This document shows, piece after piece, positions 40,524-55,107 of a stretch of DNA of 64,000 bases. Each line of letters begins with the position of its first letter. Position 1 is the stretch's first letter. The translations under genes were made by a program, and so were the position numbers. Source of the stretch: Tabrizicola soli (lineage in GTDB: Bacteria > Pseudomonadota > Alphaproteobacteria > Rhodobacterales > Rhodobacteraceae); contig NZ_JAEACP010000010.1 of the NCBI RefSeq assembly GCF_015999335.1, forward strand, positions 120,672-184,671. Direction: 5' to 3'. The notes under the pieces are model-generated. The model made no database searches and was not told the origin of the DNA. It saw nothing but the letters and a program-made list of their open reading frames with translations.

Positions 40524-40531
40524 CACCAACC

Positions 40532-40558
40532 TCTGCGGCCGGGTTCTCCGGCCGCAGA
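40532..40558 (+). terminator. Hairpin between torA and moeA
   Basis: An 11-bp perfect stem (TCTGCGGCCGG against CCGGCCGCAGA) with a 5-base loop, in the 55-base gap. It is followed by TCCCTT, not a long T-run, so it may be a partial terminator that lets some transcript read into the cofactor genes. Confidence 0.6.
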
Positions 40559-40578
40559 TCCCTTGAAGGACCGGACCG

Positions 40579-41817
40579 ATGAACGCCTCCAGTGACATGC
40601 CGCTGATGATCGACGTGGCCGCCGCGCGCGAGATCGCCGTCGCGCAGATCACGCCTGTCCGCGGCGTTCAGGACGTGCCCCTGCACGCGGCGCCGGGCCG
40701 GACCTGCGCCCGCGACGTGATCGCGACGAGCGCGATGCCCTTCTTCACCAATTCCGCCATGGACGGCTTTGCCCTGCGCCATGCCGACCTCGCCGGTGCG
40801 GGGACGCTGTTGCCGGTGGCCGGAACCGTCGCGGCCGGTGTGGCCGGAACCTCCCTGCCGCCGGGCGCCGCCCTGCGGATCTTCACCGGGGCGCCCCTGC
40901 CCCTTGGGGCGGATACCGTCGTGGCGCTGGAAGACACCAGCGAGGCGGGCGGCCCGGTCCGCATCGACGTGATGCGCGACATCGGCGCCAACCTGCGCCT
41001 TGCCGGCAGCGACCAGCCGCTCGGCGCCTGCCTCGTCGCCCGTGGCGCGCGGATCGCGCCGCGGCATGTCGGCCTGCTGGCCGCGAACGGGATCACCCGC
41101 GTCGCCGTCACCCGCAGGCCGCGGGTCGTCGTCCTGTCGACCGGCGACGAGCTTGCCGCCTCCGGCGCGCCACGGGCCGGGGGCCAGATCCATGATGCCA
41201 ACCGTCCCATGCTGCTTGCGCTGGCCCAGGTGGCCGGCTGCGAGGCCGTGGACGGCGGCATGATGCCGGATGACGTGGACCCGCTGTCGCAGCGGCTGGC
41301 CGAGCTTTGCGCCTCGGCCGATCTGGTCCTGTCCTCGGGCGGGGTCTCGATGGGCGGGCGCGACCCGCTGCGGCCGGCCTTTGTCCGCGCGGGCGGCGAG
41401 ATCGCGGGCTGGCGGGTGGCGGTCAAGCCGGGCAAACCCGTGATGTTCGGACGCCTGGGCGGGACCGCCTTCACCGGCCTGCCGGGCAATCCGATGGCGG
41501 CCTTCGTCGGCTTCCACCTGTTCGTCGCGCCGCAGATCGACCGGCTTGCCGGGGCGAAACCCCTGCCCTTCGCCCGCTGGTCGGGCACGGCCGCATCGAC
41601 CTGGCAGCACCGTCCCGGCCGCCAGGAGATCGTTCCCGTCCGTTGCCTTGGCGCGGACGGGACCGGCCTTCCGCTGCTGGAACGGCTGGGCAAGGGCGTC
41701 TCGGCCACGCTGTTCCCGCTGGCGGCCGCCGACGGCCTTGCCGTGATCCCCGCCGCGTCCGAGGGCATCGCGATGGGAGAGCCTGTCGACTGGCACCCCT
41801 TCCGGCACGAGGGCTGA
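40579..41817 (+). CDS. moeA: MoeA, molybdopterin molybdenumtransferase
   Basis: A 412-residue cytoplasmic enzyme that inserts molybdate into adenylated molybdopterin. Features include [19 protein letters not shown] near the N-terminus, [30 protein letters not shown] and the metal-insertion region [17 protein letters not shown] followed by KPGKPVMFG and [15 protein letters not shown] precedes the ATG. It opens the cofactor operon next to torA, which needs the product. Confidence 0.94.
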
Positions 41818-41819
41818 TC

Positions 41820-42866
41820 ATGCTGCAGACCCCCGACGCCTTCCGCACGACCGCCCTGCCCGTCTGCGCCCCGCTGACCGACAGCTTCTGCCGCAAGATC
41901 CGCTACCTGCGGGTTTCGGTCACCGACCGCTGCGATTTCCGCTGCACCTATTGCATGGCCGACCGGGTGCGTTTCCTTCCGCGCAAGGAGCTTCTGTCGC
42001 TGGAAGAGCTGGACCGCCTCTGTTCCGCCTTTGTCGGGCTGGGCGTCACCAAGCTGCGGATCACCGGCGGCGAGCCGCTGGTCCGGCGCGACATCCTGGA
42101 GTTCTTCCGCGCGATGTCGCGCCACCTCGAGACCGGCGCGCTGCGCGAGCTGACGCTGACCACCAACGGCAGCCAGCTTGCCCGCCATGCCGGGGCGCTG
42201 GCCGCCTGCGGGGTGCGGCGGGTGAATGTCTCGCTGGACACGCTGGACCCCGGCCGTTTCGCCACGCTGACGCGGCGGGGGCAACTCGCCCCGGTGCTGG
42301 AGGGGATCCGCGCGGCCAAGGCGGCCGGGCTGCGCGTCAAGATCAACACCGTCGCGCTGAAGGGGGCGACAGAGGACGAGCTTTTCCCGCTGGTCGACTG
42401 GTGCGCGGCCGAGGGCCACGACCTGACCTTCATCGAGCTGATGCCGATGGGCGAGGACGGGCTTGAGGACCGGATCGCGCAGTACCTGCCGCTCTCCGAC
42501 CTGCGGAGGCGTCTGGCCGGGCGCTTCACGCTGGAGCCGCTGACGGAAAGCACCGGCGGCCCGGCGCGCTATGTGCGGCTGGCCGAGACCGGGCAGAAGA
42601 TCGGCTTCATCACGCCGCTCAGCCACAGCTTCTGCGAAAGCTGCAACCGCGTGCGGCTGACCTGCACGGGCGATCTCTACACCTGCCTGGGCCAGGAGGG
42701 CGCGACCGCCCTGCGCCCGGTCCTGCGCGGCACGCCGGACGCGGCGGGACTGGAGCAGGCGATCCGCGCCGCAATCGCCCGAAAACCGCGCGGGCATGAC
42801 TTCGACTATTCGCGCGGGGTGCCGCGCGGCGCGATGGCGCGCGGCATGAACCATACCGGGGGATGA
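41820..42866 (+). CDS. moaA: MoaA, GTP 3',8-cyclase
   Basis: A 348-residue radical SAM enzyme for the first step of molybdopterin synthesis. The SAM-type [4Fe-4S] site is CDFRCTYC (Cys38, 42, 45), [12 protein letters not shown] is the GGEP motif, the second cluster uses [20 protein letters not shown], and the ending is RGMNHTGG, whose GG tail is needed for MoaA function. ATG 41820 follows the moeA stop by two bases; the frame is open further upstream but only the shorter form starts outside moeA. Confidence 0.95.
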
Positions 42867-42869
42867 CCG

Positions 42870-43124
42870 ATGGCAAGCATCGACGTGCTCTACTTCGCCT
42901 GGCTGCGCGAGCGGATCGACGCCCCGCGCGAGCGGATCGAGACCGAGGCCGGGACCGTGGCCGACCTCATGGCGGAACTGGTGGCCCGCAGCGACCGCCA
43001 CGCCGCCGCCTTCGCCGATCCGGCGGCGGTGCGGGTGGCGCTGGACCAGCAGCTTGCGGACTTCGCCGCGCCGATCGCCGGCGTGGCCGAGATCGCCTTC
43101 TTCCCGCCGATGACCGGGGGCTGA
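42870..43124 (+). CDS. moaD: MoaD, molybdopterin synthase sulfur-carrier subunit
   Basis: An 84-residue ubiquitin-fold protein ending FFPPMTGG, the GG tail that is thiocarboxylated. VLYFAWLRERIDAPRERI at the start matches the family. It is activated by the MoeB protein encoded four bases downstream. Its partner MoaE is not in the window. Confidence 0.93.
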   Translation: MASIDVLYFAWLRERIDAPRERIETEAGTVADLMAELVARSDRHAAAFADPAAVRVALDQQLADFAAPIAGVAEIAFFPPMTGG

Positions 43125-43127
43125 GCG

Positions 43128-43913
43128 ATGCAGATGACGGTGCCCCTGTTTGCCGAGGGCGAGTTGCCCCGCTATGCCCGCCACATCGCATTGCGCGAGA
43201 TCGGCGGTCCGGGACAGGCGCGGCTGAAACGGACCTCGGTCCTGGTGGTGGGCGCGGGCGGGCTGGGCGCGCCGGTGCTCATGTACCTTGCGGCGGCGGG
43301 GGTGGGCCGGATCACGGTGGTGGACGATGACAGCGTCTCGCTGTCGAACCTGCAGCGGCAGGTGATCCACAGCCAGGACCGGCTGGACATGCCCAAGGCC
43401 GTCTCGGCCCGCATTGCTATGGCCGGGATCAATCCCTTTGTCGCCGTGACCGCGCTCGAGGCCCGGCTGGATGCGGGGAACGCGACCCAACTGGTCGCGG
43501 GACAGGATCTGGTGATCGACGCGACCGACAACCTGCCCGCGCGCCACCTGCTGAACGCCGCCTGCGTGGCGGCGCGGGTCCCGCTTCTGTCCGGCGCGAT
43601 CAGCCAGTGGGAGGGTCAGGTGACGCTGTACGATCCCGCCCGGGACGCGCCCTGCCTCGCCTGCCTCTTTCCGGTGATCCCGGCCGAGGGGCTTGCCCCG
43701 GACTGCGCCAGCGCCGGCGTCATGGGGGCGCTGCCCGGCATCATCGGCGCGATGATGGCGGCCGAGGCGATCAAGCTGATCACGGGCGCGGGGCGCAGCC
43801 TGCGGGGGCGGCTTCTGATGCAGGACGTGCTTTGGGGCGAAAGCCGGGAAATCGCCGTGCACCGGCGCAAGGACTGCCCCGTCTGCCGCGGGATCAAGGG
43901 AGAGGACGCATGA
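43128..43913 (+). CDS. moeB: MoeB, molybdopterin-synthase adenylyltransferase
   Basis: A 261-residue E1-like enzyme that adenylates the MoaD C-terminus. It shows [23 protein letters not shown] (nucleotide binding), [29 protein letters not shown] and two zinc CxxC pairs (CLAC and CPVC). No rhodanese domain is attached, so it is of the MoeB rather than MOCS3 type. Its stop overlaps moaC as ATGA. Confidence 0.93.
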
Positions 43914-44401
43914 CCCTGACCCATTTCGACGCCGAAGGCCGCGCGCATATGGTCGACGTCTCGGACAAGCCGTTGACGGACCGTATCGCCGTGGCCGAGG
44001 CCGTGGTGCGCATGACGGCGGGGACGCTGGCCCATGTCACCGAGGGGCGGGCGAAGAAGGGCGATGTGCTGGGTGTCGCGCGGCTGGCCGGGATCATGGC
44101 GGCGAAGCGGACGGCCGACCTGATCCCGCTGTGCCATCCGCTGCCGCTGACCCGCGCCGCCGTCGATCTGGTGGCCGATCCGGCGCTTCCGGGGGTGCGG
44201 ATCCGCGCGACGGTCAGGACCACGGGCACGACCGGGGTCGAAATGGAGGCGCTGACGGCGGCTTCGGTTGCCGCCCTGACGGTTTATGACATGCTGAAGG
44301 CGGTGGAAAAGTCGATGGTGGTGGACGCGATCCGGCTGGTGCTGAAGGATGGCGGCAAGTCCGGGCGCTATGTCGCCCCGGAAGCGGAGGACAAGGCATG
44401 A
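43910..44401 (+). CDS. moaC: MoaC, cyclic pyranopterin monophosphate synthase
   Basis: A 163-residue enzyme that converts the MoaA product to cyclic pyranopterin monophosphate. [45 protein letters not shown], and [20 protein letters not shown] followed by DGGKSG are family signatures. A frame open upstream to 43607 overlaps moeB and is rejected; ATG 43910 is coupled to the moeB stop. Confidence 0.95.
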
Positions 44402-44910
44402 GGCTGGCGCATGTGAGCATCGGCGGACGGGGCGAGACCGACCGTTTCCTGGCTGCGGTCGCCGGGCGGCTGGAAGCCGCCGGGGTGCGCCTGGCGGGGA
44501 CGGTGCAGACCAACGTCAGCCGCGCGGACCGCACCCGCTGCGACATGGACCTGCGCGTCCTGCCGGACGGTCCGGTGGTGCGGATCAGCGAGGATCGCGG
44601 GGCCGCCGCGCGGGGCTGCATGCTGGACCACGGCGCGCTGGAGCAGACCGTGGCCGAGGTGGCGCGGCGGCTGGAGGGGGCCGGGGTGCTGATCGTCAAC
44701 AAGTTCGGCAAGGCCGAGTCCGAGGGGCGCGGGCTGGTCCCGGTGATCTCGGAGGCGCTGGCGCGGGGGATGACGGTGCTGGTCGGGGTGAACGGGCTGA
44801 ACCTGCCGCTCTACCTTGACTTCGCGGGGGGGTTGTCCGAGGCGCTGCCCGCGGACGAGGCCGTGGCGACCGGCTGGTGCCTGGCGGGAGTATGTGACCA
44901 TGTCGACTGA
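44398..44910 (+). CDS. DUF2478 protein of the molybdenum cofactor operon
   Basis: A 170-residue soluble protein of the DUF2478 family, which resembles small nucleotide-binding NTPases but has no clear Walker A here. [35 protein letters not shown] is the conserved centre. Members often lie near molybdate uptake or cofactor genes. Its ATG overlaps the moaC stop, and its 3' end overlaps the next gene by 11 bases, so it is made with the pathway enzymes. No role has been assigned. Confidence 0.8.
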
Positions 44911-45439
44911 CGATCCGTTGATCTCTGTGCTGGTCGTCTCGGACCGGGCCTCGCGCGGGGAGTATGAGGACAAGGGCGGGCCTGCGGCCGAGGACTGGCT
45001 GCGGCGGGTGGTGACCTCTCCGGTCCGCATCACGCGGCGGATCGTGCCGGACGGGCGGGAGTCGGTCGCGGCCGCGCTGCGGGAACTGGCGGATGCGTAT
45101 GGCGCGGACCTGATCCTGGTCACCGGGGGAACCGGCCCCGCCCCGCGCGACCAGACGCCCGAGGCGCTGGACGCGGTGATCGACAAGCGCCTGCCGGGCT
45201 TTGGCGAGGCGATGCGCCTGGCCAGCCTGGCCGAAGTGCCCACGGCGATCCTGTCGCGGCAGGATGCGGGCATCCGGGGACGCTGCCTGATCATCACGCT
45301 GCCCGGCAAGCCCTCGGCGATCGCGACTTGCCTGACGGCCGTGTTCCGCGCGGTGCCCTATTGCCTCGACCTGATCGAGGCGGCGCGGATCGAGACCGAT
45401 CCCGCGCTTTGCGAGGCCTTCCGCCCGAAGGGCGCTTAG
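44900..45439 (+). CDS. moaB: MogA/MoaB-type molybdopterin adenylyltransferase
   Basis: A 179-residue enzyme that adenylates molybdopterin before metal insertion by MoeA. Key stretches are SDRASRGEYEDKGGPAAEDWL, ILVTGGTGPAPRDQTPEAL and ITLPGKPSAIATCL. Whether to call it mogA or moaB cannot be settled by eye. The ATG lies inside the end of the DUF2478 gene; an upstream frame to 44816 is not needed. Confidence 0.88.
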   Translation: MSTDDPLISVLVVSDRASRGEYEDKGGPAAEDWLRRVVTSPVRITRRIVPDGRESVAAALRELADAYGADLILVTGGTGPAPRDQTPEALDAVIDKRLPGFGEAMRLASLAEVPTAILSRQDAGIRGRCLIITLPGKPSAIATCLTAVFRAVPYCLDLIEAARIETDPALCEAFRPKGA

Positions 45440-45444
45440 GGGCG

Positions 45445-45465
45445 CGGCCTGATCCCGTCAGGCCG
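45445..45465 (+). terminator. Hairpin after the molybdenum cofactor operon
   Basis: An 8-bp stem (CGGCCTGA against TCAGGCCG) with a 5-base loop begins six bases after the moaB stop. No T-run. It is the likely end of the moe/moa transcript. The remainder of the gap to 45595 shows no gene or clear promoter. Confidence 0.5.
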
Positions 45466-45595
45466 GCAGCTTTCCGGGAACGGATGGCGTCGCCGGACGT
45501 TGGAAGGGTTCCCAGGAGAAGGCGCCCCGCGTGACCCGGTCCGACTTGCGGTTTTCAGGTTCCTGTTGCGGACCGCCTGACAGGCGGGCCGGGCA

Positions 45596-46294
45596 ATGAG
45601 CGGCTGGGAGGGCCTTTATTGCGGCCCCGCGCCCTTGCCGGCCGAGCTTCCGTGGCGCTGGAATTTCGATCCTTGGGCGCTGACGCTGCTGACCCTGCTG
45701 GCGCTTTGGGCCGGGCGCAGCCGCGCGGGCGTCGCGGCGGTCCTGGTGCTGGCCGTGGCCTTCATCTCTCCGCTTTGCGCGCTGTCCTCGGCGCTGTTCT
45801 CGGCCCGGGTGGTGCATCATGTCCTGCTGGTGGCGGTCGCCGCGCCGCTGCTGGCGCTGGCCCGCCCGGCGCGGGCGGGGACGGCGGCCGGGTTGCCGCT
45901 CTTGCTGGCGACCGCCTGCCTGTGGTTTTGGCATGTGCCCGCGCCATATGACGCCGCGCTGGGACACAAGGCGCTGTACTGGGTCATGCAGGCGAGCCTT
46001 TTCGGATCGGCCTGGGCCTTCTGGCGCGCCGCCTTCTCCCTGCGGGACGGCGCGGGGCTGGGCTGGGTCTGCCTGGCCTTCCTGGCGATGGGGATGCTGG
46101 GCGCGATCCTGGCCCTTGCGCCCGGCGCGCTTTACGCGACCCATGCGACGGCGCCCCTGCTCTGGGGCCTGTCGCCGCTGGCCGACCAGCAGCTCGGCGG
46201 CCTGGTCATGTGGATGCCCGCCGGTCTGCCCTATGTCGTCTGGGGCGGGATGCTGGCGCGGCGGGCCTGGCGCGCGACGGGGGCGACGCCGTGA
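45596..46294 (+). CDS. ctaG: CtaG-family (caa3 type) oxidase assembly membrane protein
   Basis: A 232-residue membrane protein with about six to seven helices and many tryptophans. It carries ARVVHHVLLVAVAAPLLALARP, the family's metal-site-like HH in a membrane helix, and TACLWFWHVPAPYDAAL, both typical of the caa3 CtaG family (different from the CtaG/Cox11 copper chaperone). It opens the terminal-oxidase locus and probably helps CuB or haem assembly. GTGA overlap couples it to the next gene. Confidence 0.85.
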   Translation: MSGWEGLYCGPAPLPAELPWRWNFDPWALTLLTLLALWAGRSRAGVAAVLVLAVAFISPLCALSSALFSARVVHHVLLVAVAAPLLALARPARAGTAAGLPLLLATACLWFWHVPAPYDAALGHKALYWVMQASLFGSAWAFWRAAFSLRDGAGLGWVCLAFLAMGMLGAILALAPGALYATHATAPLLWGLSPLADQQLGGLVMWMPAGLPYVVWGGMLARRAWRATGATP

Positions 46295-46812
46295 GCGGGG
46301 CCGCGACCTGGGCCGAGGCGGTGGTCCCGCATCTCAAGGCGCTGCACCTCGGCTTCCTCGCGCTCTGGGTCGCCGGGCTGTTCGCCCTGCCGCAGATGCT
46401 GGCCCGGCATGACCGGACCGACCTGCGGGCCGAGTTCGCCCAGATCCGCCGCGCCACCCATTACGGCTATGTCTGGGCCATCACCCCCGCCGCCGTGCTG
46501 GCCATCCTGACCGGCGGCATCCTGATCTTCCTGCGCGAGGCGTTCACCGTCTGGCTTTTCGCCAAGCTGGTGCTGGTCGCGGGTCTGGTCGCGGTCCATG
46601 CCTGGGCGGGCCATACGATCATCGCCGTGGCCGAGACCGACGGAGAGCACGAGCCGCCGGGGCCGCTGGCGCCGACGCTGGTGACGGTCGCGCTGGTGCT
46701 GGGGATCCTGTTCCTGGTGCTGGCGAAGCCCGGGCTGGCCGATCTGCCCCTGCCCCGATGGTTGCTGGCCCCGCTGGGGCATCAGTTGCCCTTCGACGTT
46801 CCCAGCCGATAA
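46291..46812 (+). CDS. CopD-like membrane protein
   Basis: A 173-residue protein with four predicted helices. HLKALHLGFLALWVAGLFALPQMLARH and LIFLREAFTVWLFAKLVLVAGLVAVHAWAGH recall the CopD/HemJ family (histidine-rich membrane proteins). It starts at GTG 46291, overlapping the ctaG stop. A role in copper or haem supply to the oxidase fits its place. Its 3' end overlaps the convergent DUF2231 gene by 31 bases. Confidence 0.72.
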   Translation: MSGAATWAEAVVPHLKALHLGFLALWVAGLFALPQMLARHDRTDLRAEFAQIRRATHYGYVWAITPAAVLAILTGGILIFLREAFTVWLFAKLVLVAGLVAVHAWAGHTIIAVAETDGEHEPPGPLAPTLVTVALVLGILFLVLAKPGLADLPLPRWLLAPLGHQLPFDVPSR

Positions 46813-47303
46813 TCGAACACCAGCTTGCCGCCATGCCAGCCCGTCGCAATCACCACCAGGACCGCGAAGCCCGAGATCAGGAGGCCCCAGGGCAGCACGG
46901 CCGTCTCATAGCCTTGCAGCCGCCGGCCCCAGTTCAGCCCGAGCAGCGACAAGAGCAGCACCGCGATCACGAAATGCGTCCAGGAGGCCGCGCGGATGCG
47001 GATGCCGGGGACCATCAGCAGCTCGGCCGTGCCGGTGATCCCGGCCAGAAGGCCGAACAGGAAGGCAGTGCCGCTGGCCCAGAGCGCGGCCCAGGCCCAA
47101 CGCTCCTCGCCCGACCACCAGTAGAACAGGTCGGCCCCGAAGGCGCAGAAGGTCAGCGCCACCGGGAAGGCGACGGTCATCGCATGCAGGGGATGGCCCA
47201 TGATCGCCATGCGGGTCTCGGTCTGGTGAAAGGCGGGCTCGCTGGCGATCGGGTCGCCCGAGGAGGCGGCCTCGTCCGGCACGGGATCCTTGGTCTGGGT
47301 CAT
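46782..47303 (-). CDS. DUF2231-domain membrane protein
   Basis: A 173-residue protein with four helices, starting MTQTKDPVPDEAASSGD. MAIMGHPLHAMTVAFPVALTFCAFGADLFYWW is the DUF2231 opening, with a conserved histidine pair in GHPLHAM that could hold haem. GGAG lies six to eight bases before the ATG. It sits inside the oxidase locus on the opposite strand, and a second member of the same family is at 52217-52663. Function unknown. Confidence 0.82.
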   Translation of the reverse strand: MTQTKDPVPDEAASSGDPIASEPAFHQTETRMAIMGHPLHAMTVAFPVALTFCAFGADLFYWWSGEERWAWAALWASGTAFLFGLLAGITGTAELLMVPGIRIRAASWTHFVIAVLLLSLLGLNWGRRLQGYETAVLPWGLLISGFAVLVVIATGWHGGKLVFDYRLGTSKGN

Positions 47304-47375
47304 GGGAGGCTCCTTCGCGCGCTTGCCTGCGGGACAACGCCGTCGGCCCTTGCCGGTTGCCAGGAGCGGCTGTCG

Positions 47376-47993
47376 ATGCTGCATCCGGCGGGACCGGCCG
47401 CGGAGGCGATCGCCGGGCTGTGGTGGGTCATGCTGGCCGGTGGCGCGGCGATCCTGGTCTTCGTACTGGGACTGCTGGCCATGGCCATCCTGCGCCGCCC
47501 CTCCGCCCCGCCCGCCGCCGGCCGGAATGGCGCGGCGCTGTGGCACCATGGTCTGGGCCTCGGTTTTCCGCTGGTCACGCTGGCGGCGCTGACCGTCCAT
47601 GGCCTGGTGGTCGGAGAGCGGCTGCTGCCGCACGAGGCGGAGGGTCTGGTCACCGTGCGGGCCGAGGCGCGGCAATGGGCCTGGACCTTCGGCTATCCCG
47701 AAGCGCCCGGCCTTGCGACCGAGGATGTGCTCCACATCCCCGCCGGCCGCCCGGTGAATGTCGAGATCACCAGCCGCGACGTGGTGCATTCCTTCTGGGT
47801 GCCGCGTCTGGCGGGCAAGCTGGACGCTGTGCCGGGGCATGTGAACGTGCTGCGGCTGCAGGCCGCCGCCCCCGGCACCTATGCGGGCCAGAGCGCCGAG
47901 TTCAGCGGGCCGGGCTACAAGGGCCATGTCTTCACGGTCAGGGCGCATGACGCGGCCGCCTGGGACCGCTTCCTGCGCGGGGGATCGCCATGA
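47376..47993 (+). CDS. Haem-copper oxidase subunit II lacking the CuA cysteines
   Basis: A 205-residue (from ATG 47376) subunit II with two membrane helices (LWWVMLAGGAAILVFVLGLLAMAIL; LGLGFPLVTLAALTVHGLVVG) and a periplasmic cupredoxin domain. The CuA histidine His138 remains in DVVHSFWVP, and Glu175 is kept, but both CuA cysteines are Ser (Ser173, Ser177 in GQSAEFSGPGY), the second His is Tyr181, and the Met position is His184. CuA therefore should not form; bo3-type quinol oxidases have a similar SA.SGPG segment. An in-frame lipobox-like ALAGC lies just upstream, without an ATG, GTG or TTG in reach. Confidence 0.83.
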   Translation: MLHPAGPAAEAIAGLWWVMLAGGAAILVFVLGLLAMAILRRPSAPPAAGRNGAALWHHGLGLGFPLVTLAALTVHGLVVGERLLPHEAEGLVTVRAEARQWAWTFGYPEAPGLATEDVLHIPAGRPVNVEITSRDVVHSFWVPRLAGKLDAVPGHVNVLRLQAAAPGTYAGQSAEFSGPGYKGHVFTVRAHDAAAWDRFLRGGSP

Positions 47994-50482
47994 CCGCCCG
48001 CCGCAGGACCGCACTGCGCCTGCACCGGGAGCTGGCGCGGATCTGGGCGCCCGACCCGCGCCTTCGCGGCTGGCTGACCACCAGCAACAACAACGACATC
48101 GGGCGGCTGTTCCTGGCGGTCGCCACCGCCTTTTTCGTCATCGGCGGCCTCCTGGCCATGCTGATCCGCGCGCAGCTGGCCACGCCGGGGTCGGCCTTCA
48201 TGGGGCCGGAAGCCTATGACCAGGTCTTCACGATGCATGGCACCGTGATGATGTTCCTGTTCGCCATTCCCTTCTTCGAGGCGCTGTCGATGCTCGTGCT
48301 GCCCGGCATGCTGGGCACCCGCGATCTCGCCTATCCGCGGCTCGGCGCCTACGGCCTCTGGGTCTATGTCTTCGGCGGCAGCGCGGTGATCGTCGCGATG
48401 CTGCTGGGCCTTGCCCCGGACGGCGGCTGGTTCATGTATCCGCCGCTGACCTCGGCCGCCTTCTCGCCGGGGATCGGGGCGGATGTCTGGCTCCTCGGCA
48501 TCACCTCGATCGAGGTCTCGGCCATCGCCACCGCGGTCGAGGTGATCGTGACGGTGCTGCGCTACCGCGCCGCGGGGATGAGCCTGTCGCGGATGCCGAT
48601 CTTCGCCTGGTACATCCTGGTCGTGGCGGTGATGATCCTGACCGCCTTCCCGCCGATGATCCTGGGATCCTTGCTGCTGGAACTGGAGCGGGCGCTGGAC
48701 TGGCCGTTCTTCCAGGTGGAGAATGGCGGCGACCCGCTGCTGTGGCAGCACCTGTTCTGGCTGTTCGGCCACCCGGAGGTCTACATCATCTTCCTGCCCG
48801 CCGCCGGGATGATCGCCACCATCCTGCCGGTGATGGCGCGAACCACGCTTCTGGGCTACGGCTGGGTCGTGGCGGCGGCGGTGTCGCTGGGGGTCCTCAG
48901 CTTCGGGCTCTGGGTGCACCACATGTTCACCACCGGCATCCCGCATCTGGGGCTGGCGTTCTTCTCGGCGGCCTCGACGCTGGTGGCGGTGCCGACCTCG
49001 GTGATGATCTTCGCCTGGATCGGCACGCTGCGGCAGGGCCGGGTGCGGATGGAGCTGCCGATGCTGTGGATCATCGGGTTCTTCGCCACGTTCATCATCG
49101 GCGGGCTGACCGGGGTGATGATCGCCATCGTTCCGTTCAACTGGCAGGTCCACGACACCCATTTCATCGTGGCGCACCTGCATTACGTCCTGATCGGCGG
49201 CTATGTCTTCCCGATGATCGCGGCGGTCTACTACTTCCAGCCGCTGCTGACCGGGCGCTTCCAGGTCTTCCGCCTGGGCGGAGTGGCCTTCTGGCTGGTG
49301 GTGCCGGCCTTTCACGTCACCTTCCTGGCGGTGCATCTGGCGGGCCTTCTGGGCCAGCGCCGCCGCACCTGGACCTATGACGAGGGGCAGGGCTGGGAGG
49401 TGCTGAACCTCGTCGCCTCGGTATCGTCCTTCGTCATGGCGATCGGCTTTGCCCTGGTACTCCTGGACGTGGCGATCAACACCTTTGCCCGAGCGCGGGG
49501 GCCGCGCAATCCCTGGGGGGCGGGAACGCTGGAATGGGCGGCGCCGATGCCCTCTCCCCCCTATGGCTTCGCCTCGATCCCCATCGTCGGCAGCCGCTAT
49601 CCGCTGCTGGACGATCCCAGGATCGACCTGAAGATCGCGCGGGGCGAGGGCTATCTGGCCGACACCTCCCGCAGCCGGCGCGAGACGCTGATCGTCACCA
49701 CCGCCCAGGGCGCCCCGGCGCAGGTCGCCGTGCTGCCCTGCAACTCGGTCCTGCCCTTCCTCCTGGCGGTGGTCACCAGCACGGCCTTCCTGGCCCCGCT
49801 GGTCAAGGCCCATGCGGTCTCGGTCCTGGCCCTGGTCGGCGTGGTCGCCGTGGCGCTGGTCTGGGTCTGGCGGCTGGCCCCGGCGCGGATGGAGGGGCCG
49901 GTCGACGCCGGGCATGGCGCGATGCTGCCTTTGGCCTCCGAGACGCCGGACCCGCCGGGGTGGTGGGGCTCGCTGTTCCTCCTTCTCGCGGACGGCGTCC
50001 ATTTCGGCGCGCTCCTGTTCGGCTATGCCTTCCTTTGGACAGTGGCGCCGAACTGGCCGCCGCCGTCCTTCCTGCGGCCGGACGTGGCGGGCCCGGCCCT
50101 GGCCCTGGGCGGAGCGGGCGCGCTGGCGCTGGCGCCGCGTCTGGCGGTGCGGGCGATCGGGGCCGGGCGCGGGGCCGGTCCCGCGGTCGGGCTGGCGGCC
50201 CTGGCGGCGCTGGCGCTGGCGGGGGCGGCGGGCAGCGTGATGCTGGAGCGGCCGGATCCGGCGGGCCATGCCCATGACGCGACCCTGTGGATTCTGGCGG
50301 GGCATGTGGCGTTTCACGCCGGGCTGGTGCTGATCATGCTGTTCTACCTTGCCCTGCGCCTGGTCGCGGGGAAGGCCCTGCGCATCGGCGAGGCGCGGAT
50401 CGTCGGCCTCTGGGCCGACTTCACCGCCGCGACCGGGCTCGTGGCGCTGGGGGCGGCCTGGCTGCCGGGAGTGCTGGCATGA
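47990..50482 (+). CDS. Fused haem-copper oxidase subunit I and III
   Basis: An 830-residue membrane protein. Residues to about 540 are subunit I: the low-spin haem ligand in FTMHGTVMMF (His83), GHPEVY with cross-link His261/Tyr265 and Glu263, CuB histidines in GLWVHHMFTTG, and HFIVAHLHYV. The last part (about 600-830) is subunit III-like. The K-pathway lysine (Lys362 of Rhodobacter sphaeroides aa3) should fall 74 residues after the tyrosine; here it is Met339 (VPTSVMIFAW). Asp112 (RDLAYPR) retains the D-pathway entry, but its two usual asparagines are replaced. A very divergent A-type oxygen reductase. ATGA overlaps subunit II. Confidence 0.88.
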   Translation: MTARRRTALRLHRELARIWAPDPRLRGWLTTSNNNDIGRLFLAVATAFFVIGGLLAMLIRAQLATPGSAFMGPEAYDQVFTMHGTVMMFLFAIPFFEALSMLVLPGMLGTRDLAYPRLGAYGLWVYVFGGSAVIVAMLLGLAPDGGWFMYPPLTSAAFSPGIGADVWLLGITSIEVSAIATAVEVIVTVLRYRAAGMSLSRMPIFAWYILVVAVMILTAFPPMILGSLLLELERALDWPFFQVENGGDPLLWQHLFWLFGHPEVYIIFLPAAGMIATILPVMARTTLLGYGWVVAAAVSLGVLSFGLWVHHMFTTGIPHLGLAFFSAASTLVAVPTSVMIFAWIGTLRQGRVRMELPMLWIIGFFATFIIGGLTGVMIAIVPFNWQVHDTHFIVAHLHYVLIGGYVFPMIAAVYYFQPLLTGRFQVFRLGGVAFWLVVPAFHVTFLAVHLAGLLGQRRRTWTYDEGQGWEVLNLVASVSSFVMAIGFALVLLDVAINTFARARGPRNPWGAGTLEWAAPMPSPPYGFASIPIVGSRYPLLDDPRIDLKIARGEGYLADTSRSRRETLIVTTAQGAPAQVAVLPCNSVLPFLLAVVTSTAFLAPLVKAHAVSVLALVGVVAVALVWVWRLAPARMEGPVDAGHGAMLPLASETPDPPGWWGSLFLLLADGVHFGALLFGYAFLWTVAPNWPPPSFLRPDVAGPALALGGAGALALAPRLAVRAIGAGRGAGPAVGLAALAALALAGAAGSVMLERPDPAGHAHDATLWILAGHVAFHAGLVLIMLFYLALRLVAGKALRIGEARIVGLWADFTAATGLVALGAAWLPGVLA

Positions 50483-50781
50483 CCGGGATCCTGCGCATCG
50501 CGCTGCCGCTTACGGTCTGGCTGGCCGGATTCTGCGCGATCTACGCACTTCAGGGCCTGGGCTGTTCGCGGCACTGGCCCGAGGGGCTGGACCGGCGCGC
50601 GACCCTGATCGCGGCGGCGGCGCTGTTCGTGCTGGTCCAGACGCTGATCCTGCTGGCGGTCCTGTATCGTCCGTCCGGCTTCCGCTTCGTGCAGGCGACG
50701 GCCACCCTTCTGGCGGGGGCGGCGCTGGCGGCGGCGGTCTGGACCTCGCTGCCGGTGCTGACGCTGGAGATCTGCGGCTAG
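50479..50781 (+). CDS. Small membrane protein of the oxidase operon
   Basis: A 100-residue protein with three predicted helices (IALPLTVWLAGFCAIYAL; TLIAAAALFVLVQTLILLAVLY; ATATLLAGAALAAAVWTSL). It overlaps the subunit I/III gene by ATGA. The position matches that of subunit IV or a DUF-type accessory protein in other oxidases, but no family was recognised. Its stop codon TAG shares CTAG (50778-50781) with the stop of the convergent gene. Confidence 0.65.
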   Translation: MTGILRIALPLTVWLAGFCAIYALQGLGCSRHWPEGLDRRATLIAAAALFVLVQTLILLAVLYRPSGFRFVQATATLLAGAALAAAVWTSLPVLTLEICG

Positions 50782-52205
50782 GGCGCAGCGGGTTCCGGGC
50801 TGCCGGCGGCGGGCGGCGTTGTGGGTTCGGCGCCAGGCGCGGTGGCGACGCGGTCGGTCTCGACCGGGGCTTCGCTGACCCGGCCGTCCGCCGCCGCGAC
50901 GCGCCAGACGGTGTTGCCGGCGTCATCGGCGACCAGCAGCGCGCCGGTGCCGTCCAGCCCCACGCCGACGGGGCGGCCGCGCACCTTGCCATCCACCAGG
51001 AAGCCGGTCACGACATCCTGCGCCATGCCATCGGGAACGCCGTTGGAGAAGGGGATGTAGGACACCTTGTAGCCGTTGAACTCATCCCGGTTCCAGCTGC
51101 CGTGCTGGCCGACGAAAGCGCCGTTGCCGTAGGCCTCGGGCAGGGCCGAGCCGTTGGTGAACACCAGCCCCAGCGCCGCCACATGGCTGGACAGCGCGTA
51201 GTCCGGCGCGATCGCCGTCGCCACCAGGTCGGGCCGTGCCGGGCGGACGCGTTCGTCGACATGGGCGCCGTAATAGCTGTAGGGCCAGCCGTAGAACGCC
51301 CCCTCCTGCACCGAGGTCATGTAGTCGGGCACCAGGTTCGGCCCCAGCTCGTCGCGTTCGTTGATCACCGCCCAGAGGACGCCGGTCTCGGGGTGGAAGA
51401 TCAGCCCGTTCGGGTTGCGCAGGCCGGTGGCGTAAGGCTTCGAGGCCCCGGTTGCCCGGTCGATCTGCCAGATCGCGGCGCGGCCACGCTCGGCCTCCAT
51501 CCCGTTCTCGCCGGCATTCGAGTTCGACCCGACCGAGGCATAGAGCATGGTCCCGTCCGGGCCGAGGGCCAGGTCCTTGGTCCAGTGGTGGTTGAGCGGC
51601 CCGCCGGGCAGCGGGGTGAGCAGTTGCGCAGCGTCCGCAATCGCGGTGTCGCCCAGGGTATAGGGATAGCTGACCACGGCATCGGCGAGGGCGACATAGA
51701 GCGTGTCGTCGATCCAGGCCACCCCGAAGGGCGAGTTCAGGCCGGTCAGGAGGTCATGCCGTTCATCCACCACCCCGTCGCGGTTAGGGTCGCGCAGGAG
51801 GGTGATCAGGTTGCTGTCCTGCTGCGGCCCCTGACCGCCCCCCGCGGCGATCGACATGATCCAGCCGCGGATATAGTCCTTGGGCCGGTATTTCGGCTTG
51901 CCCTCGGGCGCGCGGGACTGGATCACCAGCACATCGCCGTTGGGCAGGGTGTGGACGGTGCGGGGATTGACGAGATCGGTGGCATAGGCTGAGATGGTCA
52001 ATCCCTCGGGGACCTGGGGCGTCTGGCCTTCGGCCCAACCGACGACCTCGGCCACGTTGAGGTCGGGCGACAGGCTGACATAGACCGGATCGGGCAGCAC
52101 CGGATCGGGCCCGATCTGGCTGGTGATGTCGAAGTCCTGAGCCTGGGCGGCAAAGCCGACGCCGGACAACAGAAGCGCGCACTTGGCAAGGCCGATGGGG
52201 GTCAT
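50778..52205 (-). CDS. Sorbosone-dehydrogenase-like (PQQ-type) beta-propeller protein
   Basis: A 475-residue exported protein with a Sec signal (IGLAKCALLLSGVGFAAQAQ). It has the glucose/sorbosone dehydrogenase beta-propeller look: STAYATDLVNPRTVHTLPNGDVLV-like blades, LNHHWTKDLALGPDGTMLYASVGSNSNAGENG and RNPNGLIFHPETGVLWAVINERDELG. Members bind PQQ and oxidise sugars or other alcohols, delivering electrons to quinone or cytochrome. The C-terminus (from about 440) is Ala/Pro-rich. ATG 52205 has AAGGAG upstream. Such genes often sit beside this kind of oxidase; here it could be the electron source, which is speculation. Confidence 0.82.
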   Translation of the reverse strand: MTPIGLAKCALLLSGVGFAAQAQDFDITSQIGPDPVLPDPVYVSLSPDLNVAEVVGWAEGQTPQVPEGLTISAYATDLVNPRTVHTLPNGDVLVIQSRAPEGKPKYRPKDYIRGWIMSIAAGGGQGPQQDSNLITLLRDPNRDGVVDERHDLLTGLNSPFGVAWIDDTLYVALADAVVSYPYTLGDTAIADAAQLLTPLPGGPLNHHWTKDLALGPDGTMLYASVGSNSNAGENGMEAERGRAAIWQIDRATGASKPYATGLRNPNGLIFHPETGVLWAVINERDELGPNLVPDYMTSVQEGAFYGWPYSYYGAHVDERVRPARPDLVATAIAPDYALSSHVAALGLVFTNGSALPEAYGNGAFVGQHGSWNRDEFNGYKVSYIPFSNGVPDGMAQDVVTGFLVDGKVRGRPVGVGLDGTGALLVADDAGNTVWRVAAADGRVSEAPVETDRVATAPGAEPTTPPAAGSPEPAAP

Positions 52206-52216
52206 GGCTCTCTCCT

Positions 52217-52663
52217 TCAGGCCGCGTGGATCCGGTGGAACGCCTGGCGCCGCAGGACAGCCGAGGCCAGCATCAGGACGCAGGTCACGAGGGACAGCCC
52301 GATCCCCCAGGGGACGATGGCGGTCCAGCCGTCGCCCGCATGGACCAGGCTGTTCAGGAAGGCCGCCGCCAGCACCAGGGCGTTCAGGATGACGATGATC
52401 CAGACCGGCCGCTGCCGATAAAGCGCAAGGCCGATCAGCCAAAGGAGGACCGCGATCCCGCCCGCCACCAGCCCCGCAAACAGAAGCCAGGACGAGAAGT
52501 CCTGCCAGGTCAGGATCATGGTCTGGACATAGGCCCAGTCGGTGAGCAGCGCCAGCGTAAAGAAGGCCGCCGCGAAACAGGTCAGGGTCTCCTGACCAGG
52601 AAGCGCGGCGGGACCGACCCGCAGGGGAGAATGGATGGGGGGATCGGAATGCTGCAACGCCAT
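52217..52663 (-). CDS. Second DUF2231-like membrane protein
   Basis: A membrane protein of 148 residues from ATG 52663 (MALQHSDPPIHSPLRVGPAALPGQ). The frame is open to ATG 52783, and GTG 52732 has AGGA four bases before it, so the start is uncertain. Four helices are visible (CFAAAFFTLALLTDWAYVQTMI; LLFAGLVAGGIAVLLWLIGLALY; VWIIVILNALVLAAAFLNSLVH; IVPWGIGLSLVTCVLMLASAVL). It resembles the DUF2231 protein at 46782-47303 in layout. It is 11 bases from the sorbosone-dehydrogenase-like gene and should share its transcript. Confidence 0.72.
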   Translation of the reverse strand: MALQHSDPPIHSPLRVGPAALPGQETLTCFAAAFFTLALLTDWAYVQTMILTWQDFSSWLLFAGLVAGGIAVLLWLIGLALYRQRPVWIIVILNALVLAAAFLNSLVHAGDGWTAIVPWGIGLSLVTCVLMLASAVLRRQAFHRIHAA

Positions 52664-52907
52664 CTGTCCATCTTGCTGGAAACCCCCGTCAAACGCGGCA
52701 AGGCCGGAATTTGTTCCGTCGGGTTCAGACACGGGGTCCTTGCGACGCTCCGGCACAGCCCATGTTGGACGTGGGGCGATCACTCGGGCCGGAGATGGTA
52801 ATCCGGTCGAGGAAGAGGCGATGCCGAACGGTCGGGTCGTGGAACAGGGGGTCTGTCCCGGAGCCGAATGCCGCGGAGAGCAGCGCAGAGTCTGGATGGT
52901 CCCCGCA
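52664..52907 (-). promoter_or_regulatory. Gap upstream of the DUF2231-like gene
   Basis: No gene with good codon use is seen except the possible N-terminal extension of the DUF2231-like gene (up to 52783). The region should hold its promoter. No clear hexamers or repeats were found by eye. Confidence 0.25.
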
Positions 52908-53510
52908 TCACGCCGCGAGATCGTCGAAGAACACCACGTCCCTTATCCCCGTCTGTGCTACGGCATCGCAGGGCTCATAGGTCATCTCGACATGCATCGA
53001 GGTGCCGTGGCCCCGGAACACGGCCAGCCAGTGATGCAGGCAATCCTGGTCAACGTCGATCGCCACATGACGCCTGCTGACCGCCGAGACCATCGCGACC
53101 TCGCCCCGCCGCACCGCCTTCACGAAGTCCTCGTCGTGCAGGAAAAGGCTGGCCTCATCCACCAGGCGCTCGATCAGCCGGGTGTTGGTCAGGCTGGAGA
53201 ATGTCGGCCAGAGGGCGTGCATGCCGCGGGAGGCGCAGACCAGCCGTACCCCGTCAAGATCCAAGGAGGCGCGGGGATTGGGCGCCTTTTCCAGCGCCAG
53301 GCGGTCGGCATCGACACGATGCACGCCTGCCGGGGACATGATGTCCAGAAGGCGCAGCCTCAGCCGCTTGCCGGGGGCGGCCTTGCCGGTTTCCCAGTTG
53401 GAAACCAGGGTCTGCGTGACGCCGAGCATTTCGGCTAGGGTCTGCTGCTTCACCCGGGAGGCCTTGCGCCATTCCGGAAGCAGGCGGCAGAGGTCGGCTT
53501 CGTTTAACAT
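52908..53510 (-). CDS. XRE-family helix-turn-helix regulator with an uncharacterised C-terminal domain
   Basis: A 200-residue protein. The N-terminal helix-turn-helix is RKASRVKQQTLAEMLGVTQTLVSNWETGKAAPGKRLRLRLLDIM. The C-terminal part (from about 75) has blocks such as VCASRGMHALWPTFSSL and VAIDVDQDCLHHW followed by EMTYEPCDAVAQTGIRDVVFFDDL; it looks like a PAS-like or sensor domain but no family was recognised. A frame open upstream to 53690 is rejected in favour of ATG 53510. Targets are unknown. Confidence 0.75.
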   Translation of the reverse strand: MLNEADLCRLLPEWRKASRVKQQTLAEMLGVTQTLVSNWETGKAAPGKRLRLRLLDIMSPAGVHRVDADRLALEKAPNPRASLDLDGVRLVCASRGMHALWPTFSSLTNTRLIERLVDEASLFLHDEDFVKAVRRGEVAMVSAVSRRHVAIDVDQDCLHHWLAVFRGHGTSMHVEMTYEPCDAVAQTGIRDVVFFDDLAA

Positions 53511-53607
53511 CCTGGCCTGCGCGGTGAACTTCCAGGGCAGGATAGCACAGCGGGAAGGGAGGGTGGCTTCGGCAAAGGGCGGGGATCCGTCCGCCGGAAG
53601 TATGGTC

Positions 53608-53633
53608 AGGGCGGCCCGAGGCCGGGCCGCCCT
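53608..53633 (-). terminator. Terminator-like hairpin after the delta-60 repeat gene
   Basis: An 11-bp perfect stem (AGGGCGGCCCG against CGGGCCGCCCT) with a 4-base loop lies 14 bases after the repeat-protein stop. On the minus strand no T-run follows. It probably ends the monocistronic transcript. Confidence 0.55.
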
Positions 53634-53646
53634 TTCCCGAATGGCC

Positions 53647-55092
53647 TTATTGGGCGGTAAGGCGCAGCACGGCGATGTTGGTGCTGCCATCCTCGGCGGC
53701 AGTGGTGCCCGCGACGACGATCAGCTTGTCCCCCTGTAGCGCGACGCCGTTGGCGATGTCATCGCCGTCCCCCAGCGAGATGCTGGCGATGCCGTTGCCG
53801 GTGCCGTCATCGGCCTGCCCGAAGGACTGGTCCAGCTCTCCCGCCGCATCGAAGCGCGCGACGGCGATGTTGGTGCTGTCCCCGGCCTGGTGGTAGCCGG
53901 CCACGACGATGCGTCCGTCAGCCTGCACCGCGACGCCGGTCGCGAAGTCGTTGCCATCACCCAGCGAGGTCGAGGCAAAGCCGTTCGGGGTGCCGTCCTC
54001 GGACACCCCGAAAGCCTCGTCCGGGGTGCCATCGGCATTCAGGCGGGCCAGAACAAAGTTGGACGACCCGTCAGCCGAGACGCTGTCCCCGACCACGACG
54101 ATCTTGCCGTCGGCCTGCAGCGCCACATCGCGGAAGACGTCATTGCCATCGCCCAGCGAGATGTTGACGAAGCCCTCCGGGGTGCCGTCATCGCCCGAGA
54201 CGCCGAAGGTGGCATCCGGAACGCCCGCCGCGTCGTAGCGGGCCACGAGCATGTTGGACGACCCGTCCTCGGCCAGGCGCGAGCCCGCGACGACGATCGC
54301 GCCATCGGCCTGCAGGACCAGGGCGTTGGCGATGTCGTTGCCTGCGCCCAGCGAGGTGGCGACAAAGCCGTTCGGGGTGCCGTCCTCGGACTGGCCGAAG
54401 CTTTCGTCGATGCTGCCGTCGGCGTTCAGCCGGGCCAGGATGATGTTGGTCGAGCCGTCGGCCACCACGCTGTCGCCGGCCAGCACGATCTTGCCGTCGG
54501 GCTGGATCGCCACGTCGCGGGCCACGTCATTGCCATCGCCCAGAGAGATGTTGACGATACCGTTCCCGGTCCCGTCATCGGCGGCGCCGAAGCCCTGGTC
54601 CAGCGTGCCGTCCGGGTTCAGGCGCAGCACGACCATGTTGGTCGAGGTGCCTTCCTCATGGTAGCCGGCGATGACGGTCTTGCCGTCGGACTGGGTGGCG
54701 ATTGCAGTGCCGAAGTCGTCCCCTTCGCCCAGCGAGATGCTCACCACGCCATCCGGGGTGCCATCCTCCTTGCCCACGCCGAAACCGGCGTCAAGGCTGC
54801 CATCGTTCGTGTAGCGCACGATGACGATATCGTTGCTTTGCCCGTTGTGGCGGTTGCCGACGATGGCGACCGCGCCATCCGCGCCGACAGCCAGATCTTC
54901 GGCCGCGTCATTGCCATTGCCCAGCGAAGTCGAGACCACACCGGCCGGAGTGCCGTCTTCCTCGCCCGCGCCGAAGGTCGCGTCGAGCACGCCCGCACCA
55001 TCCGCCGCCCATGCAATGCCGGCGACAAGGGCGAGCACGGAAACGGTGCCCAGTCCAAGGGCCGCGCCCCTGGTGGCAATCTGGTTCTTCAT
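53647..55092 (-). CDS. Exported delta-60 repeat beta-propeller-like protein
   Basis: A 481-residue exported protein with a Sec signal (GLGTVSVLALVAGIAWA). From about residue 32 to the end it is seven tandem repeats of 62-65 residues, each running (V/S/T)xDxxFG...(G/D)DGTxxG...SLGxGxD...(Q/P)xDGKIVVAG...(S/T)(S/T)N(I/M/F)xxARxxxxG. This is the delta-60 repeat family, thought to build a beta-propeller. The repeats are rich in Asp and Gly, as for Ca-binding or surface adhesion domains, but that is inference. ATG 55092 follows GAGGA. It is flanked by hairpins on both sides and stands alone. Confidence 0.85.
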   Translation of the reverse strand: MKNQIATRGAALGLGTVSVLALVAGIAWAADGAGVLDATFGAGEEDGTPAGVVSTSLGNGNDAAEDLAVGADGAVAIVGNRHNGQSNDIVIVRYTNDGSLDAGFGVGKEDGTPDGVVSISLGEGDDFGTAIATQSDGKTVIAGYHEEGTSTNMVVLRLNPDGTLDQGFGAADDGTGNGIVNISLGDGNDVARDVAIQPDGKIVLAGDSVVADGSTNIILARLNADGSIDESFGQSEDGTPNGFVATSLGAGNDIANALVLQADGAIVVAGSRLAEDGSSNMLVARYDAAGVPDATFGVSGDDGTPEGFVNISLGDGNDVFRDVALQADGKIVVVGDSVSADGSSNFVLARLNADGTPDEAFGVSEDGTPNGFASTSLGDGNDFATGVAVQADGRIVVAGYHQAGDSTNIAVARFDAAGELDQSFGQADDGTGNGIASISLGDGDDIANGVALQGDKLIVVAGTTAAEDGSTNIAVLRLTAQ

Positions 55093-55107
55093 TCTGATCT
55101 TCCTCAA

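What the first reader, a model, noticed from the sequence alone, without database searches (positions are those of the whole stretch)
47376..50482. Oxidase missing both CuA cysteines and the K-pathway lysine
Subunit II keeps one CuA histidine (His138) and the Glu but has Ser at both cysteine positions, Tyr at the second His and His at the Met. Subunit I keeps haem/CuB ligands and the His-Tyr pair (261/265) but has Met339 exactly 74 residues after the tyrosine, where Rhodobacter sphaeroides aa3 has Lys362; K362M blocks turnover there. The residues that mark the quinol site of bo3 oxidase (Arg71, Asp75 and His98 in E. coli) are also not evident. So neither the electron entry nor one proton path looks normal: an orphan respiratory oxidase or a non-pumping variant with an unknown donor.
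Basis: partly seen in the sequence, partly recalled or inferred. Interest (0 to 1): 0.75.

Follow-up and report, generated by a model that had tools for sequence, protein, structure and literature searches.

The report
Oxidase clade without K-pathway lysine
These two bacterial genes encode a respiratory oxidase whose oxygen-reducing centre residues are intact but whose electron-receiving copper ligands and textbook proton-pathway lysine are gone, as they are in its close relatives; it likely takes electrons from quinol and is predicted to draw its protons through one rebuilt, glutamate-lined channel, which would challenge the rule that such enzymes need two proton paths.

Summary
Sub II has no cysteine; residues 1-545 of sub I hold no lysine. 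It is no artefact: 120 of 120 listed sub II homologues lack the CuA ligand set, and 120 of 120 listed sub I homologues have Met (76) or Gln (44) at the K362 position. But the two absences are separate. The lysine is missing from a whole branch of A-type oxidases, most of whose sampled members keep CuA cysteines; the sub II glutamate at the K-path mouth is missing too (27 of 27 lysine carriers have it, 0 of 120 Gln/Met carriers). Most of that branch has three extra glutamates in D-path helices, one replacing Asn207. CuA was lost once inside it, separately from bo3; Met replaced Gln only in the window's subclade. Best reading: a CuA-less, probably ubiquinol-oxidising oxygen reductase that likely runs without a K pathway and perhaps without pumping. 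It is no orphan, and neither a bo3 nor a classical A1 enzyme. R. sphaeroides QoxBA (2000) is likely a member, untested; Murali et al. 2022, which may already list this CuA loss, could not be read. My searches found no biochemistry for a CuA-less member.

The parts
47376..47993 (+). Subunit II (205 aa), two N-terminal helices and a CuA-less cupredoxin domain
   Evidence: PF00116 56.9 bits; TIGR02866 CoxB 137.1 bits, under its cut-off 147.7; AF2 model mean pLDDT 81.5, best folds caa3 and bo3 sub II
47889..47927 (+). Former CuA loop, sub II residues 172-184, QSAEFSGPGYKGH: Ser173, Glu175, Ser177, Tyr181, His184
47787..47789 (+). Codon of sub II His138, the CuA histidine that is kept
   Evidence: 120 of 120 listed homologues
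47547..47549 (+). Codon of sub II His58, at the K-path mouth where 27 of 27 lysine carriers have Glu (taken to be Rs E101)
47990..50482 (+). Subunit I-III fusion (830 aa)
   Evidence: PF00115 444.7 bits; TIGR02891 CtaD 657.1 bits, under its cut-off 670.75; AF2 model pLDDT 88.4, pTM 0.91; Thermus caa3 I+III 754 residues at rmsd 2.5
49004..49006 (+). Codon of Met339, the K362 position
48278..48280 (+). Codon of Glu97, new acid one helix turn from the Rs Asn121 position
   Evidence: Glu in 220 of 223 Gln/Met rows, 0 of 28 Lys rows
48512..48514 (+). Codon of Glu175, new acid one turn from the Rs Ser201 position
   Evidence: Glu in 224 of 224 Gln/Met rows, Gly in 28 of 28 Lys rows
48539..48541 (+). 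Codon of Glu184, in place of Rs Asn207
   Evidence: Glu in 221 of 224 Gln/Met rows, Asn in 28 of 28 Lys rows
49358..49360 (+). Codon of Arg457, directly before the Arg458-Arg459 pair; Pro in CuA-bearing relatives
   Evidence: Arg in 141 of 141 rows counted as CuA-less, Pro in 80 of 83 CuA-bearing Gln rows
50479..50781 (+). 100-aa hydrophobic protein starting in the ATGA overlap; possible small subunit
   Evidence: homologue in 11 of 11 CuA-less loci by phmmer; similar hydrophobic frames at this place in many CuA-bearing relatives; no Pfam, NCBIfam or PHROG match
45596..46294 (+). Caa3_CtaG-type gene, likely assembly factor
   Evidence: PF09678 91.1 bits; beside the oxidase in 11 of 11 CuA-less loci
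46246..46812 (+). HemJ/CopD-like membrane protein gene (start uncertain)
   Evidence: PF03653 45 bits; 11 of 11 CuA-less loci
46782..47372 (-). DUF2231 membrane protein gene (start uncertain)
   Evidence: PF09990 120 bits; 11 of 11 CuA-less loci

Best explanation
This gene pair encodes a haem-copper oxidase of a CuA-less clade that likely oxidises ubiquinol and reduces oxygen, and that is predicted to work without the K proton pathway by feeding its protons through a D-type channel relined with glutamates. Shown by sequence: intact haem and CuB ligands with the His-Tyr pair, no CuA cysteines, no lysine in the sub I domain, no glutamate at the K-path mouth, three conserved glutamates in the D-path helices. 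Shown by trees: the lysine is absent from a whole branch; CuA was lost once inside it; Met replaced Gln only in the window's subclade. Inferred: electrons go from quinol straight to the low-spin haem, with Arg457 of sub I and Tyr181 of sub II closing the place where CuA handed electrons over. Inferred: Asp112, Glu184, Glu97, Glu175 and Glu263 line one input route that supplies the reductive-phase protons too. Inferred: with Gly, Ser or Thr at the asparagine-gate position the enzyme pumps poorly or not at all and conserves energy mainly by charge separation.
For: Residue tables. Trees: the side without Lys has 61 of 80 rows, SH-aLRT 99; the CuA-less clade 28 rows, 100; the window's Met subclade 6 rows, 99; FastTree on 165 rows gives one CuA-less clade of 34 rows (12 of them proteins without a paired sub II), support 100, and two CuA changes in all. 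No CxxCH motif in 23 of 23 CuA-less sub II, against 72 of 97 CuA-bearing Gln-type sub II with one. Own genome: no bd oxidase and no sub I reaching the CyoB or QoxB cut-off among its 7, so this would be the only quinol oxidase found there. dN/dS 0.11-0.41 against four relatives in both subunits, rough because dS is high. CtaG-type gene kept in 11 of 11 CuA-less loci. K319M blocks haem a3 reduction and N98D/T/S decouple pumping in model enzymes (passages of PMC12901375).
Against: No biochemistry of a CuA-less member was found in the ten literature searches. The bo3 quinol residues are absent, and the scan for residues specific to the CuA-less clade shows no obvious new polar set at the matching helices, so the quinol site is unplaced. 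Three basal Gln rows (L081, L082, L084) lack all three glutamates, so these acids are not needed wherever the lysine is absent. 13 of 97 CuA-bearing Gln rows lack even the D-channel Asp (N 7, E 4, S 2). The direction of change at K362 depends on rooting: the split is shown, the loss is assumed. Related coxMNOP oxidases were weakly expressed (PMC5492768, passages) or without fitness effect when inactivated (PMC11540253, passage).
Confidence: 0.55

Rival explanations
1. The K route still works without lysine: Gln or Met leaves room for a water wire from the cytoplasm past Thr336 to Tyr265, as B- and C-type oxidases use K routes without that lysine.
For: Thr at the T359 position in 139 of 141 CuA-less rows, Ser at the T352 position in 141, Tyr265 in 141. 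B and C types have alternative K-channels without the lysine (table note of PMC3084760).
Against: The mouth Glu of sub II is absent in 120 of 120 Gln/Met rows; the S299 position is Ala or Gly in 76 of 77 Met rows; Met is hydrophobic, and K319M/K362M blocks the model enzyme.
Confidence: 0.25
2. The reductive-phase protons come from the periplasmic side, as in nitric oxide reductases, so no cytoplasmic K route is needed.
For: Both ends of the K route are gone; quinol oxidation would release protons on that side (general knowledge).
Against: D-channel Asp and GHPEVY Glu are kept in 23 of 23 CuA-less locus rows and three acids were added on the cytoplasmic side path, which argues for cytoplasmic uptake.
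Confidence: 0.1
3. The donor is not quinol: a periplasmic cytochrome c, a cupredoxin or a dehydrogenase such as the neighbouring GSDH protein passes electrons directly to the low-spin haem.
For: GSDH plus a second DUF2231 gene lie beside the oxidase in 3 of 11 CuA-less loci; the bo3 quinol residues are absent.
Against: Neighbouring dehydrogenases differ from locus to locus; sub II has no haem c motif.
Confidence: 0.2
4. It reduces nitric oxide or another acceptor rather than oxygen.
For: The proton path is unusual, and known nitric oxide reductases lack these input channels (recalled).
Against: CuB histidines, the His-Tyr pair and the GHPEVY Glu are kept in 23 of 23 CuA-less locus rows.
Confidence: 0.07
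5. It is a decaying or inactive oxidase.
For: Two textbook features are gone; related oxidases are weakly expressed.
Against: All metal ligands conserved in 23 of 23 CuA-less locus rows apart from a frame-broken N-terminus in one (L071), dN/dS well below 1, and a conserved gene cluster in 11 of 11 loci.
Confidence: 0.05

Closest known systems
CoxMNOP-type and I-III fused A-family oxidases with CuA (e.g. rows from Shinella, Devosia, Roseomonas, Pseudomonas, Bradyrhizobium)
   Same: Same branch of the trees: Gln at K362, no sub II mouth Glu, Glu97/175/184; the nearer ones share the CtaG-CopD-DUF2231 cluster. That the published coxMNOP genes belong here is inferred from genus and name, not tested.
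   Different: They keep His138 and both CuA cysteines, often with a haem c motif; the window's clade has neither, has Arg457 instead of Pro, and its own subclade has Met instead of Gln.
E. coli bo3 (CyoAB) and B. subtilis aa3-600 (QoxAB) quinol oxidases
   Same: A-family fold, sub II without CuA, Ser at both Cys positions in CyoA.
   Different: bo3 keeps the lysine, the sub II Glu, the asparagine gate and its quinol residues R71, D75, H98; separate CuA loss in the tree.
R. sphaeroides aa3 cytochrome c oxidase and its K362M mutant (PDB 3om3)
   Different: There Met is an engineered change that blocks turnover; here it is the natural state, with no CuA, no mouth Glu and a relined D path.
R. sphaeroides QoxBA (Mouncey et al. 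2000, seen only as a citation in PMC3152904)
   Same: Described as a quinol oxidase; a sub II labelled Rhodobacter sphaeroides (P0214) is CuA-less and of this family.
   Different: Identity of P0214 with QoxA not tested; gene order in the window is II then I.

Membership tests
A-type (A1) haem-copper oxygen reductase | Haem and CuB histidines and the His-Tyr pair | tested here: met
   H83, H261, H310, H311, H396, H398, Y265
A-type (A1) haem-copper oxygen reductase | D-channel Asp and the Glu of GHPEVY | tested here: met
   D112, E263
A-type (A1) haem-copper oxygen reductase | Asparagines and serines of the D-channel (list in PMC3084760) | tested here: not met
   M101, G119, E184, A178, G122 at those positions
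A-type (A1) haem-copper oxygen reductase | K-channel Lys (with Thr, Ser, Tyr; PMC3084760) | tested here: not met
   Met339 and Ala276; Thr336 and Tyr265 kept. So filed as a variant of A-family descent and fold, not as a channel-defined A1 enzyme
A-family fold | Sub I (and III) fold | tested here: met
Cytochrome c oxidase (CoxB/CtaD) | CuA ligands in sub II | tested here: not met
   no Cys in sub II
Cytochrome c oxidase (CoxB/CtaD) | NCBIfam cut-offs | tested here: not met
   CoxB 137.1 of 147.7, CtaD 657.1 of 670.75 bits
bo3 / aa3-600 quinol oxidase | CuA absent from sub II | tested here: met
   I51, L55, A75
bo3 / aa3-600 quinol oxidase | NCBIfam cut-offs CyoB, QoxB, CyoA, QOXA | tested here: not met
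   422.8 of 1020.35; 439.8 of 1015.5; 77.5 of 266.2; 71.4 of 240.95 bits
Quinol oxidase by function | Oxidises quinol | not testable with these tools
   only indirect signs
Nitric oxide reductase | NOR motifs with active-site Glu (H-x-arom-x-E; HHx-arom-arom-x17-E, as in PMC3084760) | tested here: not met
   GHPEVY with Tyr265 and His310-His311-Met-Phe-Thr; not run against a NOR profile
R. sphaeroides QoxBA | Orthology to the genes of 2000 | not tested
   only a similar sub II by its label

The most novel reading that the evidence does not exclude
A natural branch of A-family oxidases has no K pathway in either subunit and runs the whole catalytic cycle, reductive phase included, on a single glutamate-lined input channel without pumping; its CuA-less clade is a separate origin of quinol oxidation with a quinol site unlike that of bo3.
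Probability: 0.35. Interest if true: 0.8.

Novelty: new variant of a known kind. Interest (0 to 1): 0.6.

Why it matters
K362M and its like are the classic proof that A-type oxidases need the K pathway to reduce their active site, and asparagine-gate changes are the classic decouplers. Here many genomes carry such replacements by nature, together with added glutamates, in genes that look to be under purifying selection. Expressing one would test directly whether one channel can do the work of two and whether pumping is dispensable, and would give a further independent case of CuA loss to compare with bo3.

Tried and rejected
Sequencing artefact or orphan: rejected by 120 of 120 listed homologues for each subunit. 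A lysine elsewhere in the K-path of sub I: none in residues 1-545. CuA and lysine absence as one event: rejected by the trees. The small downstream protein as a subunit gained with CuA loss: one search suggested it (11 of 11 against 1 of 54 loci), but one search shows similar hydrophobic frames right after sub I in 36 of 66 CuA-bearing rows (10 of 12 CuA-less ones), so I dropped the idea. A bo3-like quinol site: not seen. One fixed neighbouring donor enzyme: neighbours differ. The molybdopterin oxidoreductase at 37836-40523 seems part of another cluster. No Rfam match at 44000-54000; the promoter/terminator scan gave one promoter-like and one terminator-like site, not used.

Literature: ten searches. 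None of six exact phrases for lacking the K-channel or K-pathway, or for its lysine, occurs in the library; that is no proof that it is not in print. Murali et al. 2022 (evolution of quinol oxidation) is not held; from recall its abstract claims several independent origins of quinol oxidation, perhaps including this one.

Rows dropped or chosen: copies of the window (L002, L091, L146, L089) left out and sub I frames under 350 aa dropped. 'CuA kept' in my scripts means His138 and both Cys only; L012 and L014 lack the Met ligand. L081, L082 and L084 (basal Gln rows without the three glutamates) were left out of the 224-row counts and are told separately. L071's sub I lies in two frames; they were not joined and it is not in the trees. 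L141-L143 (Leu/Met at K362, Ala at E286) were not counted in the Gln/Met branch; their mouth position is a gap. One search used only loci with enough flank. 80 of 165 rows were hand-picked. L023 and L160 are identical in the tree. The 119 database proteins counted as CuA-less have no paired sub II; 12 of them went into the tree and all fell in the CuA-less clade.
Full report
What is there. Two overlapping genes, 47376-47993(+) and 47990-50482(+), encode a 205-aa subunit II and an 830-aa I-III fusion. Upstream lie a Caa3_CtaG-type gene, a HemJ/CopD-like gene and, on the other strand, a DUF2231 gene; downstream, from an ATGA overlap, a 100-aa hydrophobic protein. Sub II has no cysteine, and residues 1-545 of the fusion have no lysine.

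The lysine. Of the 120 listed sub I homologues (of 7997 scored; the window's own copy is in the list) 76 have Met and 44 Gln at the K362 position, none Lys. Among 169 sub I rows taken from fetched loci, Gln stands in 126, Lys in 28, Ala in 7, Met in 4, Leu in 2, Ser in 1, one gap. These rows were mostly fetched by likeness to the window's protein, so the proportions say nothing about nature at large. Of Gln/Met rows with a sub II to hand (L141 aside), 97 keep His138 and both CuA cysteines and 23 do not. At the sub II position of the K-path mouth (taken to be Rs E101) Glu stands in 27 of 27 Lys carriers and in 0 of 120 Gln/Met carriers; the eight Ala/Ser rows lack it too. That the K pathway starts near a sub II Glu is stated in PMC8361435 (passage).

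The D pathway. In 224 Gln/Met rows Glu stands at 97 in 220 of 223, at 175 in 224 and at 184 in 221; in 28 Lys rows none of the three is Glu (I 15, V 8, T 3, Q 1, F 1 at 97; Gly 28; Asn 28). Position 184 is Rs Asn207 by alignment. The Rs Asn121 position is V, I or M, rarely L or G. The Rs Asn139 position is Gly, Thr or Ser in all 140 filled CuA-less rows and Ser 47, Asn 12, Gly 11, Thr 11, Ala 2 in 83 CuA-bearing Gln rows. Three Gln rows left out of the 224 (L081, L082, L084) keep the canonical asparagines and lack the glutamates: the lysine can be absent without them. PMC12901375 reports that N98D/T/S (bovine; taken to be Rs N139) keep oxygen reduction but lose pumping, and that K319M blocks haem a3 reduction (passages).

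The tree. In 80 hand-picked rows one branch separates 61 rows with Gln, Met or Ala from 19 rows with Lys or, in three, Leu/Met (SH-aLRT 99). The root was set on the Lys rows, so 'loss' is an assumption; the split is not. The CuA-less rows and six homologous proteins form one clade of 28 rows (100) deep inside; its sister L012 still has both Cys and the second His but no Met ligand. FastTree on 165 rows gives the same clade (34 rows, 100), and two changes of CuA state suffice for the whole tree, the other being bo3. Six rows with Met form the window's subclade (99).

The former CuA site. In the CuA-less clade Arg457 stands directly before the Arg458-Arg459 pair in 141 of 141 rows, where CuA-bearing Gln rows have Pro in 80 of 83 and the 28 Lys rows (four of them bo3-type) have P 24, T 3, I 1. 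Tyr stands at the second CuA His in 120 of 120 listed sub II homologues and 23 of 23 loci. Sub II Glu175 (120 of 120) and sub I His388 and Asp389 (invariant in the alignments), which from general knowledge bind Mg, are kept. In Met rows the S299 position is Ala or Gly in 76 of 77.

Distribution and surroundings. 12 of 295 genomes of the window's family, its own included, have a sub II match at E of 2e-70 or better; the 11 others are CuA-less. 19 of 289 genomes of the class, its own included, have a sub I match at 1e-150; one search shows no CuA-less one among the loci fetched from the others. CtaG-, CopD- and DUF2231-type genes sit beside the oxidase in 11 of 11 CuA-less loci with enough flank, and in 42, 20 and 18 of 54 CuA-bearing ones. 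Neighbouring redox enzymes vary: GSDH, GMC oxidoreductase with a c-type cytochrome, FdhF/YdeP, PQQ-like propeller. Some clusters are on plasmids, one of them typed conjugative. The window's genome also has a CtaD-like sub I (615.7 bits on a 469-aa piece), two CcoN-like ones, three unassigned distant relatives, one CtaA, no bd oxidase and no sub I over the CyoB or QoxB cut-off.

Structure. The I-III model (pLDDT 88.4, pTM 0.91) matches Thermus caa3 I+III over 754 residues, bo3 over about 580 and R. sphaeroides aa3 over about 490-510. The sub II model (pLDDT 81.5) matches caa3 and bo3 sub II best. No complex of the subunits was modelled.

Reading. The economical account is a quinol oxidase of independent origin inside a branch that works without the K-path lysine. 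That it reduces oxygen is supported by the kept ligands and Tyr and by dN/dS below 1; that it uses quinol rests on the CuA loss, the missing haem c motif and the varied neighbours; that its protons use a relined D route, and that it hardly pumps, is inference from residue patterns and published mutants.

Known or new. Single members are labelled cytochrome c or ubiquinol oxidase, and R. sphaeroides QoxBA, named as a quinol oxidase in PMC3152904 (passage), is probably one, untested. PMC3084760 states that only 4 of 1216 sequences, all nearest to B type, lacked their type's channel residues (section 12 read); PMC8239418 discusses repeated K-channel loss for archaeal family A under one hypothesis (passages). 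I found no description of this branch's missing lysine with added glutamates in ten searches; the most relevant paper, Murali et al. 2022, was not available.

Noticed in passing
L083, L078, L085, L086, L087, L061:12852-14846, L108, L109: A related CuA-bearing clade has Ala (7) or Ser (1) at K362 and Trp in place of the GHPEVY glutamate; in the four rows printed an Asp follows the S299 position. Both textbook proton carriers are missing although the asparagine gate is kept.
   Followed up: partly
L072-L077, L079, L080, L049, L058, L063: 13 of 97 CuA-bearing Gln rows lack even the D-channel Asp (N 7, E 4, S 2), among them Bradyrhizobium and Mesorhizobium rows.
   Followed up: partly
L141-L143: Another A-family branch has Leu or Met at K362 and Ala at the E286 position with CuA kept, so absence of the K-path lysine is not unique to this branch.
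   Followed up: no
57881-61323 (+): A second oxidase lies in the window: a cbb3-like ccoN (560.5 bits, just under the NCBIfam cut-off 583.15) followed by frames that by eye look like CcoO and a di-haem CcoP.
   Followed up: partly
50778-52205 and 52217-52705 (-): A GSDH-family dehydrogenase gene paired with a second DUF2231 gene; the same pair lies near the oxidase in Microvirga lotononidis (L173) and Acuticoccus (L009), a possible electron-feeding module.
   Followed up: partly
34284-45439: Sensor kinase, response regulator, a molybdopterin oxidoreductase with a TAT-like start, MoeA and further frames that by eye are molybdenum-cofactor genes; perhaps a TMAO-reductase-like cluster.
   Followed up: no
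L090 (G000:C14) and L005-L007: A weak COX2 match in a 658-aa frame, perhaps the CuA domain of NosZ, and three distant haem-copper relatives in the same genome, unassigned.
   Followed up: no
53647-55107 (-): Secreted-looking protein of six or more DUF5122 beta-propeller repeats beside the cluster.
   Followed up: no
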